Source: JADFSZ01 sp022560555 [NCBI: PVC group bacterium] (lineage in GTDB: Bacteria; GCA-001730085; JADFSZ01). From it: a DNA stretch of 11,202 nucleotides. The notes beneath the pieces are model-generated. The model saw only the letters and a program-made list of their open reading frames with translations. It searched no databases and was not told the origin of the DNA. The stretch lies in NCBI GenBank assembly GCA_022560555.1, contig JADFSZ010000041.1, positions 1 to 11,202 of the forward strand, given 5' to 3'. Shown one piece after another: positions 16 to 4,043 of this stretch. Numbering within the stretch: the first letter of the stretch is position 1; every line of letters begins with the position of its first letter. The position numbers were made by a program, and so were the translations under genes.

Positions 16-140
16 AACCGTTCACCGTTCACTGTTTACTGTTTACTGTTTTTAACCGTTTACCATTCACTGCTCACCGTTTACCGTTCACTGTTTACTG
101 TTTTTAACCGTTTACCGTTCACTGTTTACTGTTTACCGCC
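16..140. repeat. Degenerate heptamer array (YACYGTT)
   Basis: Seventeen copies of a 7-bp unit, consensus YACYGTT (AACCGTT, CACCGTT, CACTGTT, TACTGTT, TACCGTT), can be read in perfect phase. The phase is broken only twice, by an extra TTT at 51-53 and at 103-105. Each TTT is followed by AACCGTT, so the array falls into three blocks of 5, 7 and 5 units. The array ends one base before the stop codon of the Wzz-like gene, so that gene's mRNA would carry the complementary AACRGTR units as its 3' end. A related cluster lies at 3936-4043. The pattern is directly visible; the function is unknown. Confidence 0.9.
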
Positions 141-1706
141 TTAATGCGTTACCATCATAATAACCGGTATTGATAAAATCAAAATCACAACAAATGACGC
201 GAATGTCCAAATGTACTTTCGCCGATTACCCCGCTTTTCATGATAAAGATCCGCCTCGGTCTTGATTGCGGCAATCGATCCAAGAATGGGAATCTTTAAA
301 TGTTCGTTGGCATCCGTATACGATCTGAATGAATGATCCGAATATTCCGCGAGAATGATCAGTGCCCCCGACAAAAAGATTCCCATCGCGAGCCCAAGGA
401 GTCCGATCTTAACGCGATTGGGCTTAAAGGGGAATTGCGGAACACGCGGGGGTTCGATCCGATTGAACCGGATTCCCTGCTCGGCCAATTCAATCTGCTG
501 GCTCAATATCTTACTTTCAAGCTGCTTTTTCATGCTTTCATATGTAGTGAGACTGATTCTGTAGTTTCTTTCGTGATTGAAAAATTCCTGTTCAATTTCC
601 GGCATTTCCTGAATACGGCTCTGATAGCCATCAACCAGCCTTTTAATCTGATCACCGCGTGTTCTCATATTAGATAAATTCTGTTCTATCTCCTGTTTGT
701 TCAATTTGAGAGCCTGATAGATGGGATTGTTCTCTGATGTTTCATTGCTTGTGAGAAGGATCTCCTCTTTATCCAATTGCGTATAAATCGTTTCAATCGC
801 GCGCTTTGTCTCAATCACTTCGGGGTGTTTTTCCGTATACAGAAGAAGGAGATTGTTAAGATAGAGTCCCAGCTCATGCTTTTTAAGTTTAAGGTCCGCG
901 ATGACAGGATTGAGCGATTTGGTTGTTTCAGAAATCACAACCGGCTCTTCGCCCGAAAGCTGTCTGGTAATCATATCCAGTTCGCTTTCATCCTGCTCGA
1001 TCAGCATTTGAACCTGCATATAGGCCGATTGCGATTCAGAAAGTTTACTTATCATCGTTCCGCCCTGACCCGGAAGGTTTAGGAGATTTTCTTCTTTAAA
1101 TCTCCTCAGCTTCCTCTCAGCAAGCTCGAGTTCATCGCCTGAATCCCGAAGGCGCTTCTGCAAAAACCCGATGGTGGACTGATACATGGACTTTTGTTTT
1201 TCTAGGCTCATTTCAATATATCTTGTCGAAAGCTGATCCACGACTTTGTATACTTTATGCCGGTCTTCTCCCTCATACGTGATACGAATAACATCCATCC
1301 CCCGAACGGACGTTAAAATATTTGCACGAACACCTTCGATAATGTTTTCCTGCGCCGCGGCACTTTTTCCGGCTGAACGCAGCATATCGATATCGGGATG
1401 ATTGAGAACCACTGTCAGATTCGCATAGCTCAAGAGTTCTTCGCGGAATGTTTTGAGCAAGTCCTGAACAAATTTTCGTGATTTGTCCGCGGACCCGCGG
1501 TCCAGCGGGTTTAAGTCCTGAGACTTTTGCTCGATTTTGATAATCGTTGTTGCCCTGTACTTCTTGGGCATAAAAAAGCTTCCGATCATCGAAATGAGAA
1601 ACACGCTCAAAATGGGGATTACAATGAGATCCTTTCTTTTAAAAATGATCCTTACATAATCCTTGAGTGTGACCTTGTCTCTAAATTCATCAATAAAAGT
1701 GCTCAT
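141..1706 (-). CDS. Wzz/GumC-type polysaccharide co-polymerase (chain-length determinant)
   Basis: This 521-residue inner-membrane protein probably works with the Wza-like exporter encoded just before it to set chain length and pass polysaccharide through the periplasm. A first membrane segment lies at about residues 27-46, followed by a Wzz-type strand-rich domain (about 48-160). Long coiled-coil stretches follow (about 165-210, 225-250, 330-410), including the LLYTEKHPEV region typical of GumC/EpsF-like proteins. The proline-rich motif PPRVPQFPFKPN (419-430) leads into the second membrane segment (433-453), as is standard for the family. Unusually, a third hydrophobic segment (about 498-518) ends the protein. 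No tyrosine-kinase domain is present. The start lies 3 nt after the wza stop, with an AGGCAGGT ribosome site overlapping that stop. The family call is firm; the exact polymer is unknown. Confidence 0.9.
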   Translation of the reverse strand: MSTFIDEFRDKVTLKDYVRIIFKRKDLIVIPILSVFLISMIGSFFMPKKYRATTIIKIEQKSQDLNPLDRGSADKSRKFVQDLLKTFREELLSYANLTVVLNHPDIDMLRSAGKSAAAQENIIEGVRANILTSVRGMDVIRITYEGEDRHKVYKVVDQLSTRYIEMSLEKQKSMYQSTIGFLQKRLRDSGDELELAERKLRRFKEENLLNLPGQGGTMISKLSESQSAYMQVQMLIEQDESELDMITRQLSGEEPVVISETTKSLNPVIADLKLKKHELGLYLNNLLLLYTEKHPEVIETKRAIETIYTQLDKEEILLTSNETSENNPIYQALKLNKQEIEQNLSNMRTRGDQIKRLVDGYQSRIQEMPEIEQEFFNHERNYRISLTTYESMKKQLESKILSQQIELAEQGIRFNRIEPPRVPQFPFKPNRVKIGLLGLAMGIFLSGALIILAEYSDHSFRSYTDANEHLKIPILGSIAAIKTEADLYHEKRGNRRKYIWTFASFVVILILSIPVIMMVTH

Positions 1707-1709
1707 TAA

Positions 1710-2600
1710 TTACCTGCCTCTTCCCAAGCCTCCGGCCCCGCCCTTAAAGAGCTTCACGCCGTTAAATGACTTGATGACGTCTGTGATAGACTCAGCTGAT
1801 TGTCCCGGAGCCAGTATTTGTCCGAGATACTTGTTGAATGTTTTGGATATTGTCATAGGAACATAAACAACATCGTTTGGCTGTAGATAAAAATCGTATT
1901 TGAGATTTCCGCTAAAGAGAAGTTTGTTCACGTTGACGTGCTTGATATAGGGTTTAACGTCCGAAGGACGGATAATCGTGGCTCTCCAACTCGCGGCATC
2001 ATCCGTCAACAATCCGGCATCAACAAGCGCGTCTCTTAAGCTGATAATATTACCTTTCATTGGAATGCGGCCGGGAAACAAAACTTCGCCGAGCACATAG
2101 ATATACTTACTCCGATAAGCCGTAATCGCAACCGTCATCTCCACATCAATGATGTATTCTTTAAGCGCTTTTTCCAGGACAACAGCTATTTCTTGTTTCG
2201 TCATATCGATCACGCGAATTTCCCCTAAGAGAGGAATAAAAACAGCCCCCTCGGGAGAAACAACATACTCTCCGCTTAAGTCCTCATGCATGCGGACATG
2301 GAGTGAGATCACATCATCAACACCCAAGGTATACGGAATGGCTCCGGGCTCGAGCGCAATGCGTACGCCATTTTTATCTTTTGGAAAAGGGTTTTTGTCT
2401 GTAAAAAAATCCACGGCTAGTGCTTTTTCATGTCGTTTTCTCTTTACGACTTTAACTTCTTCAAATTCGCCGTCATTTGAAGACGCTGATGCAAACTGCA
2501 CTCCGCCGGAACCTTTTCTCAAGTCCCGTGCATACGCCGTCTGAGGAATGACAAACAGAGCGATAAGCAGACAAACACCTAAAATTTTCCAATTCTTCAT
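1710..2600 (-). CDS. Wza-like outer-membrane polysaccharide export protein
   Basis: Predicted periplasmic or outer-membrane export protein of 296 residues. The N-terminus (MKNWK, then a hydrophobic run to about residue 20, then AYA before RD) is a standard signal peptide; the cysteine at residue 10 is not in a good lipobox. Residues 87-160 are a polysaccharide export domain (YTLGVDDVISLHV, VSPEGAVFIPLLGEI). Residues 165-250 are an SLBB-type domain (YVLGEVLFPGRIP, then LQPNDVVYVP). The C-terminus ends in a Gly-rich GGAGGLGRGR tail and lacks the long helical tail of E. coli Wza. I chose the ATG at 2600 because AAGGAG lies 6 nt upstream; the adjacent ATG at 2603 would be only 3 nt away. A longer in-frame start at 2660 would run through a hairpin. 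It sits between the MerR-like regulator and the Wzz-like gene, presumably as one operon. Confidence 0.9.
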   Translation of the reverse strand: MKNWKILGVCLLIALFVIPQTAYARDLRKGSGGVQFASASSNDGEFEEVKVVKRKRHEKALAVDFFTDKNPFPKDKNGVRIALEPGAIPYTLGVDDVISLHVRMHEDLSGEYVVSPEGAVFIPLLGEIRVIDMTKQEIAVVLEKALKEYIIDVEMTVAITAYRSKYIYVLGEVLFPGRIPMKGNIISLRDALVDAGLLTDDAASWRATIIRPSDVKPYIKHVNVNKLLFSGNLKYDFYLQPNDVVYVPMTISKTFNKYLGQILAPGQSAESITDVIKSFNGVKLFKGGAGGLGRGR

Positions 2601-2604
2601 CATA

Positions 2605-2665: not shown

Positions 2666-2878
2666 TCAATTCGTCTCTCGAAGCACCTCAAAGTATTGTT
2701 GAATGGTTTTCGCGTCATCCGGCAAATACACGCGCCATCCGCGCCAGTCTCTTTTGGCTTTTTGGATCTTGCCTCTTTGTTCCCACCGCATGATGGTTCT
2801 GGGCGTGATACCAATCCGATCCGCAAGTTCTGTAATCGTTATTTTCAGCTTCTTATTATTCTTTCTTCTATTTGCCAT
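2666..2878 (-). CDS. Small MerR-type winged-helix DNA-binding protein (BldC-like size and layout)
   Basis: A 70-residue protein consisting almost only of a MerR-type DNA-binding domain. A basic N-terminal tail (NRRKNNKK) is followed by the helix-turn-helix ITELADRIGITPRTIMRWEQRG (about residues 14-36), then a wing rich in basic and aromatic residues (KRDWRGWRVY, 42-51) and a short helix. There is no coiled-coil dimerisation helix and no effector domain. This is the layout of Streptomyces BldC, which binds direct repeats cooperatively as head-to-tail monomers; that comparison rests on family knowledge. It is the first gene before the wza- and wzz-like genes, and an array of 10-bp direct repeats lies 53-122 nt upstream of its ATG. 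I infer that it regulates its own operon. The ribosome site is weak (AGG, about 10 nt upstream). Confidence 0.85.
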   Translation of the reverse strand: MANRRKNNKKLKITITELADRIGITPRTIMRWEQRGKIQKAKRDWRGWRVYLPDDAKTIQQYFEVLRETN

Positions 2879-2912
2879 TTCAAGCTACCTGAAAGTTCCG
2901 GATTTTCGATAT

Positions 2913-3000
2913 TGTCAAAGCGCTTTCGATTGTCATAGTCTGTCATAGCCTGTCATAGACTGTCATGGTTTGTCATAGCTTTTCAAGGAGTGTCATAGAC
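2913..3000. promoter_or_regulatory. Seven 10-bp direct repeats (TGTCATAG), probable operator array
   Basis: TGTCATAG-type units start at 2931, 2941, 2951, 2961 (TGTCATGG), 2971, 2981 (degenerate TTTCAAGG) and 2991, a spacing of exactly 10 bp. An extra unit, TGTCAAAG, lies out of phase at 2913. Ten base pairs is about one helical turn, so all sites face the same side of the DNA. The complement of the 2913 unit contains a perfect -35 hexamer (TTGACA), but I see no good -10 at 16-18 bp. A promoter needing help from a bound regulator is therefore possible. The array lies directly upstream of the MerR-like gene and is its most likely target. Confidence 0.75.
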
Positions 3001-3188
3001 ATGCATGTTTTGTGCCATCGAAAGAGACTGCCTTTTAAGTCTTTTACTTTCAAATACTTAAATTGCAATTTGATGTTTTAAAAAGCCGGAAGGGGAAGTT
3101 GTGAATACGAAACAAGAAATCCCGTATTTTCTGTAAAACTATATTTTACATATAGTTACATCATGTTGATTTATACGAACAAAAACAG
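3001..3188. other. AT-rich spacer with overlapping inverted repeats
   Basis: The gene-free stretch 2879-3188 (310 nt) holds the direct-repeat array and then this AT-rich part. Visible here are a perfect 12-bp palindrome AAATTGCAATTT (3060-3071) and two overlapping inverted repeats: TGTAAAActataTTTTACA (3132-3150) and AACTATA/TATAGTT (3137-3143 with 3151-3157). The two stems share bases and cannot form together. They lie about 30-55 nt after the truA stop and could be an operator or a weak transcription end. I see no gene and no clear T-run terminator. Confidence 0.5.
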
Positions 3189-3929
3189 TCATTTATAGTA
3201 GACCTTTTCGAGGCACAAGCCGGACGCCGGGACGGTATAACCGGCCAAATTCCGGTCACCGCTCTTGAGAACAGTCTCAATCGTGTCCAATGTAAGCTTG
3301 CCCCTGGAAAGCTCAATCAGGGTCCCCGTGAGAATACGAACCATGTTATGAAGAAATCCATCCGCTTCAAAAGTAAAAATCACATCATCACCGGCCTTCT
3401 TGATCGAAAGCCGATGAATGTTTCTCACAGAGTTTTCTTTAAGAGAGCTGATCTTGGAAAACGCGGAAAAATCGTTTTTCCCCTTAAGAATTTTAGCCCC
3501 CTTTTTCATGAGGGGAACATCCAGAGCAAAAGGATAAAAATACACAAAACGCTTTCTCATGGGACAACGGTAGCTGCGGTTGAATATGGTATACGTATAT
3601 CGCTTCTTCTTAGCTGCGTATTGGGCGTGAAATTCCAAAGGGGCTTTTTCGACTTTGGTGATCACAATATCTTTTGGCAAAATAGAATTGAGGGCCTTTT
3701 TGAGACTCTCCGTTGAAATACTTGATTTTGCCACCTTAAAATGCGCAACCTGACCGCGCGCGTGAACACCCGAATCGGTCCGGCCGGCTCCGCGGATCTT
3801 GACTATGTGCCCAAATATTTTATGGAGTTTTTTTTCAATAAGCTCCTGAATGGTTAATGCATTTTTCTGCTTTTGCCATCCGGCATAATTGGTGCCGTCA
3901 TATTCAATTGTGAGTTTGAAATTTTTCAT
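3189..3929 (-). CDS. truA: tRNA pseudouridine(38-40) synthase TruA
   Basis: Cytoplasmic enzyme that converts uridines 38-40 in the tRNA anticodon arm to pseudouridine. The 246-residue length is usual for TruA. The N-terminus KLTIEYDGTNYAGWQKQ (5-21) and the catalytic motif GRTDSGVHARGQVAHF (49-64), with Asp52 as nucleophile, are diagnostic. Further family motifs are NSILPKDI, FHAQYAAKKKRYTY and the C-terminal FLHNMVRILTGTLIELSRGK. The ATG is placed as in other TruA proteins, with a weak ribosome site (CAGAG). It is a housekeeping gene among glycan genes, 106 nt downstream of the hydrolase gene on the same strand. Heptamer-like repeats (CTGTAAA) begin 6 nt upstream of its start codon. Confidence 0.96.
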   Translation of the reverse strand: MKNFKLTIEYDGTNYAGWQKQKNALTIQELIEKKLHKIFGHIVKIRGAGRTDSGVHARGQVAHFKVAKSSISTESLKKALNSILPKDIVITKVEKAPLEFHAQYAAKKKRYTYTIFNRSYRCPMRKRFVYFYPFALDVPLMKKGAKILKGKNDFSAFSKISSLKENSVRNIHRLSIKKAGDDVIFTFEADGFLHNMVRILTGTLIELSRGKLTLDTIETVLKSGDRNLAGYTVPASGLCLEKVYYK

Positions 3930-3935
3930 GAGACT

Positions 3936-4043
3936 CTGTAAACAGTGATCTGTAAACTGTATAAAAAACCTTTAATGCCCTTACTTTTTCCTCAATATGT
4001 CGCCATTGACCCATTCACCGTTCACCGTTTACCGTTTACAGTG
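3936..4043. repeat. Second heptamer cluster, two halves in opposite orientation
   Basis: At 3936-3963 the units CTGTAAA, CAGTGAT, CTGTAAA, CTGTATA read in 7-nt phase, with the family oriented on the minus strand. At 4016-4043 CACCGTT, CACCGTT, TACCGTT, TACAGTG read on the plus strand. The two halves bracket about 50 nt of unrelated AT-rich sequence. CTGTAAAC (3936-3943 and 3950-3957) is the exact complement of GTTTACAG (4034-4041), so a long-range stem is possible. The right half runs into the last codons and the stop of the hydrolase gene. It belongs to the same family as the array at 16-140. Confidence 0.75.

What the first reader, a model, noticed from the sequence alone, without database searches (positions are those of the whole stretch)
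2666..3000. BldC-like mini-MerR regulator facing a seven-unit, 10-bp-phased direct-repeat operator
A 70-residue protein that is only a MerR-type DNA-binding domain lies next to TGTCATAG repeats spaced exactly 10 bp apart (2931 to 2991), upstream of the polysaccharide export genes. Classical MerR proteins bind one palindrome as dimers. A domain without dimer helix plus same-face direct repeats matches the filament-type binding known for Streptomyces BldC. A BldC-like switch controlling surface polysaccharide in a diderm candidate phylum would be a new setting. The repeats and the protein layout are seen; the binding is inferred.
Basis: partly seen in the sequence, partly recalled or inferred. 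Interest (0 to 1): 0.72.

Follow-up and report, generated by a model that had tools for sequence, protein, structure and literature searches.

The report
BldC-like regulator with ten-base repeats
A tiny DNA-binding protein heads a slime-export operon and sits beside seven ten-base DNA repeats; relatives show the same kind of repeats at its own promoter and at genes for exosortase-sorted surface proteins, so it probably forms a protein chain on DNA that coordinates the bacterial coat.

Summary
In detail: a 70-residue winged-helix MerR protein (2666-2878, -) and seven units at exactly 10-bp spacing (2931-2998), six with intact TGTCAT. The array is the operator of the protein's own operon (mini-MerR, wza, wzz).

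(2) The arrangement recurs: of 84 wza-linked relatives 36 have 10-bp-phased GACA units and 54 a sigma-54 site; of 32 not wza-linked, 0 and 2. GACA pairs lie 10 bp apart 60 times, never 9 or 11. The relatives' unit TAGGACATAC matches the window's TATGACAGAC. (3) Relatives carry the array, reversed, two bases before a -35-like ATTGA: 53 matches in 25 of 384 genomes (control 3); 23 next genes end in a PEP-CTERM motif (background 0 of 148). The window's genome has RpoN, an exosortase, PrsT and a PrsR-like activator.

Best reading: a BldC-like, head-to-tail, direct-repeat regulator in the sigma-54/exosortase circuit, limiting its own operon and, in relatives, activating exosortase substrates. Binding, chain form and sign are inferred. 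It fails NCBI's BldC model cut-off: works like BldC, not a proven member.

The parts
2666..2878 (-). mini-MerR (70 aa, wHTH only), first gene of the operon
2931..2998 (-). seven-unit, 10-bp-phased direct-repeat operator; in gene direction CTATGACA / TATGACAGAC; units at 2931, 2941, 2951, 2961, 2971, 2981 (degenerate), 2991
3003..3017 (-). sigma-54-type promoter TGGCAC-N5-ATGC; the only 0-mismatch hit of TGGCAY-N5-WTGC in the window; start site expected about 12 bases further on, in the first repeat (rule of thumb, recalled)
1710..2603 (-). Wza-type polysaccharide export protein (Poly_export); best NCBIfam model TIGR03027 XrtA/PEP-CTERM export, 84.2 bits, below cut-off 180
141..1706 (-). Wzz-type chain-length determinant; TIGR03007 XrtA system, 278.7 bits against cut-off 278.85
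3189..3929 (-). tRNA pseudouridine synthase (truA-like), upstream neighbour

Best explanation
The 70-residue protein is a BldC-like mini-MerR that binds 10-bp direct repeats head to tail, one monomer per helical turn, on one face of the DNA. The window's array is the operator of its own operon. RNA polymerase with sigma-54, probably driven by the genome's PrsR-like activator, starts the regulator-wza-wzz operon from 3017-3003. The protein then coats about +1 to +60 and limits its own operon (negative feedback by occlusion or roadblock). In relatives the same kind of protein coats reversed arrays that end two bases before the -35 of sigma-70 promoters and there activates genes for exosortase-sorted (PEP-CTERM) surface proteins, linking polysaccharide export to the proteins of the coat. 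Shown: the array, the promoter motifs, their recurrence, phase and target genes. Inferred: that this protein is the binder, the chain form, and the sign of each effect.
For: Counts include the window. Period 10 is the best tandem period in 41.4 of 117 upstream regions (ties shared) against a mean of 7.5 (max 13.7) in 20 shuffled sets and 11.8 of 113 further upstream. GACA pairs: 60 at 10, 37 at 20, 23 at 30, none at 9 or 11 (56, 33, 20 without the window). At least two exact GACA in a 10-phased chain in 37 of 117, mononucleotide shuffles 0.45; all 37 are wza-linked, 37 of 85, against 0 of 32 not linked. Sigma-54 pattern in 48 of 83 RDW-class promoters, 0 of 83 on the other strand. Array start keeps one helical phase to the -12 element, R 0.70, n 25, p about 5e-6. 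Target pattern: 53 matches in 25 of 384 genomes, control 3; 23 of the 25 have the mini-MerR against 161 of 384, P 9e-8; 23 next genes with a PEP motif, background 0 of 148; 10 of 10 tested pass TIGR02595. Own genome: rpoN, exosortase, PrsT, PrsR-like. BldC precedent: 9-bp repeats, optimised site with CGGAC, activator and repressor (PMC5859096, PMC6428758).
Against: No binding data. 48 of 84 wza-linked relatives lack two exact units at their own promoter. In the window's own genome no convincing array was found outside the operon: of four other 1-mismatch hits, three lie in or over ORFs and the fourth (C205) is 107 bp before a long membrane-protein ORF; the exosortase contig has no 10-bp GACA pair. 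The antisense control for chains is not empty (15 of 117). G358 has target matches but no mini-MerR at E 1e-10. By a recalled alignment BldC's Arg22 is not conserved, and NCBI's BldC model is far from met.
Confidence: 0.74

Rival explanations
1. The array is bound by another regulator, for example the sigma-54 activator (PrsR-like), and the mini-MerR next to it is incidental.
For: Arrays sit by sigma-54 promoters and a PrsR-like activator is in the genome; G358 has target matches without a detected mini-MerR.
Against: In 25 of 26 loci with both features the array lies downstream of the -12 element, unlike usual enhancer sites (recalled); arrays also abut sigma-70-like promoters, five of them found without selecting for that; 23 of 25 array genomes hold the mini-MerR; other mini-MerR lineages have their own different 9- or 10-bp repeats.
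Confidence: 0.13
2. The repeat is a neutral tandem duplication.
For: Heptamer tandem repeats lie nearby (17-138, 4014-4039).
Against: Core conserved, spacers free; same unit, spacing and place in many species.
Confidence: 0.03
3. The mini-MerR activates its own operon instead of limiting it, by bending DNA or helping the sigma-54 complex.
For: BldC both activates and represses (PMC6428758); fixed phase to the -12 element.
Against: The array covers the expected start site and early transcript, a repressive place.
Confidence: 0.3
4. Relatives use the mini-MerR on target arrays, but the window's species uses it only on its own operon.
For: No convincing other array in G000 at the stringency used.
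Against: The genome is incomplete (91.5 %) and degenerate arrays would be missed.
Confidence: 0.45

Closest known systems
BldC of Streptomyces (PMC5859096; PMC6428758)
   Same: about 70-residue MerR wHTH without coiled coil; phased direct repeats of varying number; the optimised whiI site repeats AATTCGGAC and shares GGAC with TAGGACATAC; activator and repressor
   Different: 10-bp instead of 9-bp spacing; repeats regular enough to find by pattern; sits in a sigma-54/exosortase circuit in Omnitrophota-like bacteria; fails NCBI's BldC model cut-off; Arg22 of the BldC interface not conserved (recalled alignment)
PrsK/PrsR/PrsT control of PEP-CTERM genes in Proteobacteria (PMC1569441)
   Same: sigma-54-type promoter, PrsR-like activator, PrsT and exosortase in the window's genome; exopolysaccharide genes
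   Different: there the PEP-CTERM genes themselves mostly carry the sigma-54 site; here a set of them in relatives carries sigma-70-like promoters with an array, a possible second tier not seen in the passages read
Classical MerR regulators (CueR, CadR, CarH) and CvkR
   Same: winged-HTH fold
   Different: classical MerR proteins dimerise and bind palindromes (PMC5859096), CvkR is a homodimer (PMC9938897, passages); this protein ends after the wHTH and faces direct repeats

Membership tests
BldC family | small MerR-type wHTH protein without coiled-coil or effector domain | tested here: met
   70 aa, PF00376, model of a lone wHTH
BldC family | NCBIfam NF033787 HTH_BldC above its cut-off | tested here: not met
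   19.2 bits, cut-off 77
BldC family | phased direct-repeat sites of variable number | tested here: met
   7 units in the window; at least 2 exact units in 37 of 117 loci, window included; spacing 10 instead of 9
BldC family | Arg30-Trp31, hydrophobic Phe21/Val23/Leu43, Glu16-Arg22 contact | tested here: inconclusive
   Residue roles from PMC5859096. By an alignment to the recalled BldC sequence R31-W32, I22, I24, W45 and E17 fit, Arg22 is G23; Arg at the Arg30 place varies in A2
BldC family | head-to-tail cooperative multimer on DNA | not testable with these tools
   no protein-DNA complex prediction available
Classical MerR family | C-terminal dimerisation coiled coil | tested here: not met
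   protein ends at residue 70 after one helix following the wing
XrtA/PEP-CTERM exopolysaccharide system | XrtA-type chain-length determinant | tested here: inconclusive
   TIGR03007 278.7 bits, cut-off 278.85
XrtA/PEP-CTERM exopolysaccharide system | exosortase and PrsT in the genome | tested here: met
   TIGR02602 156.8 (cut-off 105.55), TIGR02917 400.8 (cut-off 312.2) on G000:C170
XrtA/PEP-CTERM exopolysaccharide system | PrsR above its cut-off | tested here: not met
   TIGR02915 414 bits, cut-off 502.6; second-best model for this activator after AtoC
Sigma-54 promoter | GG(-24)/GC(-12), TGGCAY-N5-WTGC, and rpoN in the genome | tested here: met
   0 mismatches at 3003-3017 (with 1 mismatch allowed, 3 hits against 2.67 by chance), rpoN TIGR02395 434 bits, recurrence in 48 of 83 RDW-class loci

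The most novel reading that the evidence does not exclude
A two-tier circuit for bacterial coats: a sigma-54 activator (PrsR-like) switches on the polysaccharide-export operon, whose first product is a BldC-like chain-forming protein that limits this operon and, through reversed arrays joined to sigma-70 promoters, switches on the exosortase-sorted surface proteins. It would be a missing regulator of PEP-CTERM genes outside Proteobacteria and a BldC-type regulon readable directly from DNA sequence.
Probability: 0.6. Interest if true: 0.86.

Novelty: new variant of a known kind. Interest (0 to 1): 0.76.

Why it matters
The 2006 paper on PEP-CTERM (PMC1569441, passages) says that many PEP-CTERM genes within and outside Proteobacteria have upstream regions outside its sigma-54 class and that further regulators remain to be found. 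Here a small regulator, its operator and a concrete target list can be read from sequence in many uncultured species. It also offers a sequence-specific example of BldC-type direct-repeat recognition; the BldC authors wrote that BldC sites cannot be predicted bioinformatically (PMC6428758). Number of units, 10-bp spacing, orientation and joining to -35 or -12 elements become testable rules.

Tried and rejected
Neutral tandem repeat: rejected. A genome-wide TGTCATAG regulon in the window's own genome: not found; the G000:C130 hit upstream of a NusG-like gene runs over the end of an ORF and was dropped. A one-residue longer wing as the reason for 10 instead of 9 bp: dropped, as wings of equal length go with both spacings. 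My early reading that relatives carry the motif in the other orientation at their own promoters (notes) was wrong: the register TATGACAGAC / TAGGACATAC is the same. Structure search does not single out BldC: RacA, HiNmlR, CarH and CadR score as well or better; BldC was not among the 50 rows of the second look, which excludes nothing. A Pfam scan of array-target products failed and was not repeated there. Rows dropped: L005-L033 (weaker first hits, many classical MerR; seen) and the copies L097, L099 were not in the counted set; of 136 loci 17 duplicates; of 119 two with short or N-filled upstream DNA; L104, whose array lies upstream of the sigma-54 site, from the phase test. One of the 53 target matches (G432:C121) is that species' own-promoter array read from the other strand, so 22 of 24 genomes with outside matches hold the mini-MerR. 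L181/L182, L121/L128 and L156/L169 (one genome) are close, so the phase p is optimistic. One search crashed after printing the spacing counts; the rest was redone. One gene counted as cut off (L256) is whole in L281 and not PEP. Literature: (open-licence PMC only) listed, by title and start of abstract, no paper on this regulator in exosortase or Omnitrophota systems; one search showed 10 of 2,223. PMC5859096: sections 9, 10, 13 and passages; PMC1569441, PMC6428758, PMC9938897: passages only; the others as listings.

Full report
What is there. The window lies in a 1.66-Mb draft genome (G000, 91.5 % complete) of a phylum for which one other genome was searched. On the minus strand an operon runs mini-MerR (2878-2666), Wza-type exporter (2603-1710), Wzz-type chain-length protein (1706-141). 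The last is 0.15 bits below the cut-off of the XrtA-system model TIGR03007. Upstream, 53-120 bp before the start codon, seven units repeat at exactly 10 bp (2931-2998). In gene direction the sequence reads TGGCAC-AAAAC-ATGC-ATGT-CTATGACA..., a sigma-54-type promoter at 3017-3003 followed after four bases by the array. With one mismatch allowed, such a pattern is not unusual in 11 kb (3 found, 2.67 expected); the hit here is the only one without mismatch. Its weight comes from recurrence.

Recurrence of the array. From the fetched loci L050-L186 and the window I took 136 genes, 119 non-redundant, 117 with usable upstream DNA. Period 10 was the best tandem period in 41.4 of 117 (ties shared), against 7.5 on average (max 13.7) in 20 shuffled sets and 11.8 of 113 in DNA further upstream. 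Pairs of GACA lie 10 bp apart 60 times, 20 bp 37 times, 30 bp 23 times, and never 9 or 11; without the window 56, 33, 20. At least two exact GACA in a 10-bp chain: 37 of 117; mononucleotide shuffles 0.45; far upstream 4 of 113; antisense 15 of 117. All 37 are followed by a wza homologue: 37 of 85 wza-linked, 0 of 32 others; without the window 36 of 84. The longest chains are those of the window and of L177, six exact units of seven each. The consensus of 99 units from relatives is TAGGACATAC; the window's TATGACAGAC agrees in 8 of 10 bases. Mini-MerR genes of other lineages have other units with the same logic, for example CTATGAAA at 9 bp and TTTAATAA at 10 bp (G088), ATACTT at 9 bp (L051/L076), TATAG at 9 bp (G055/L069).

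Sigma-54. TGGCAY-N5-WTGC occurs within 300 bp upstream of 48 of 83 RDW-class genes, 3 of 27 of the mixed class and 0 of 8 of the RDPMS class; antisense 0 in all; shuffles at most 0.2. A slightly looser pattern gives 55 of 85 wza-linked and 2 of 32 others. Both features occur in 26 loci; in 25 the array lies downstream and its start keeps one helical phase to the -12 element (mean 8.5 modulo 10, R 0.70, p about 5e-6). rpoN is found in 24 of 27 genomes searched, including G000, not in G001, G524, G474. In G355, G409, G428, G325 and G410 an rpoN hit lies on the same contig within about 1.5 kb of the mini-MerR, in the opposite direction.

Targets elsewhere. Three KGACA units (up to 1 mismatch) in 36 genomes returned many own promoters, but also reversed arrays before genes for proteins ending in a PEP motif (L219, L221, L233, L235, L236, and L220 where it is joined to a sugar transferase). 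Of the 18 regions, five arrays (L219, L221, L222, L223, L235) end exactly two bases before ATTGA although that had not been selected; three of these five precede PEP-motif genes. The combined pattern TGTC-N6-TGTC-N6-TGTC-NN-ATTGA, up to 1 mismatch, gave 53 matches in 25 of 384 genomes, reversed-pattern control 3. 23 of the 25 genomes hold the mini-MerR (161 of 384 overall, P 9e-8). Next genes: 23 with a PEP motif in the last 45 residues, 7 cut off by the end of the fetched DNA, 1 without ORF (the own-promoter array of G432), 22 others, among them PocR/AraC-like regulators and a protein resembling TIGR04073 (exosortase-associated) below cut-off. Background: 0 of 148 complete ORFs of at least 150 aa, any frame, in loci L067-L186; this is a rough yardstick. 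Ten of the 23 were tested and all ten pass TIGR02595. The promoters look sigma-70-like: TTGACA is 6/6 in 24 and 5/6 in 16 of 53 (TTGA is largely forced by the pattern), and a -10 with at least 4 of 6 bases, best of spacers 14-19, in 50 of 53.

Two architectures. Of 35 genomes with the own-promoter array, 4 also matched the target pattern (one of them, G432, through its own-promoter array); of 47 wza-linked genomes without it, 15 did (Fisher P 0.036). So a number of relatives without an array beside wza have arrays elsewhere, but 32 showed none at this stringency.

Exosortase link. PF09721 in 80 genomes that I chose: 23 of 25 with target matches (G358 and G498, without mini-MerR, among the 23), 18 of 26 with own-promoter arrays, 5 of 26 without mini-MerR (3 of them weak), G000 yes, G001 and G145 no. 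On G000:C170 lie an exosortase, PrsT, a sensor kinase, a PrsR-like sigma-54 activator (414 bits, cut-off 502.6) and a sugar transferase with a PEP motif at its start. No 10-bp GACA pair was found on that contig.

Mechanism. BldC monomers bind 9-bp repeats head to tail, with an AT-rich minor-groove element and a C-G pair read by Arg30 (PMC5859096); the optimised site is CAATTCGGACAATTCGGACA. The family unit has the same make-up, an AT-rich part and GGAC, with one more base per turn. I therefore infer one monomer per 10-bp unit on one face. The array over the expected start site suggests limitation of the own operon; the array joined to the -35 suggests activation. Neither sign is shown.

Membership. 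By fold and size it is a lone MerR wHTH, but structure matches do not prefer BldC and NCBI's BldC model is far below cut-off. I file it as working like BldC.

Noticed in passing
window 17-138 and 4014-4039: Heptamer tandem repeats (ACCGTTT and variants); period-7 arrays also appear upstream of some relatives (L109, L111).
   Followed up: no
L102, L103, L109, L119, L144, L163, L168, L183, L186: The mini-MerR shares one open frame (325-353 aa) with the Wza-like exporter. In L183 the HTH runs straight into a hydrophobic segment, which could give a membrane-tethered regulator; six keep an ATG at the joint.
   Followed up: partly
G355:C153, G409:C39, G428:C19, G325:C60, G410:C60: An rpoN hit lies divergently beside the mini-MerR operon; G409 and G410 have another rpoN hit elsewhere.
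   Followed up: partly
L220 (G291:C2) and L292:9060-9791 (G000:C170): PEP-CTERM-like segment joined to an exopolysaccharide sugar transferase, in a relative and in the window's own genome.
   Followed up: partly
L080 (G158:C32): Six ACATA units at 5-bp spacing right before a mini-MerR gene of the RDPMS type.
   Followed up: no
G358: Two target-type matches, but no mini-MerR at E 1e-10; incomplete genome or another binder.
   Followed up: no
L242, L256, L245, L269: PocR/AraC-like regulators follow target arrays in four genomes (G417, G327, G335, G394): L242 and L256 by NCBIfam, L245 and L269 only by look-alike sequence.
   Followed up: partly
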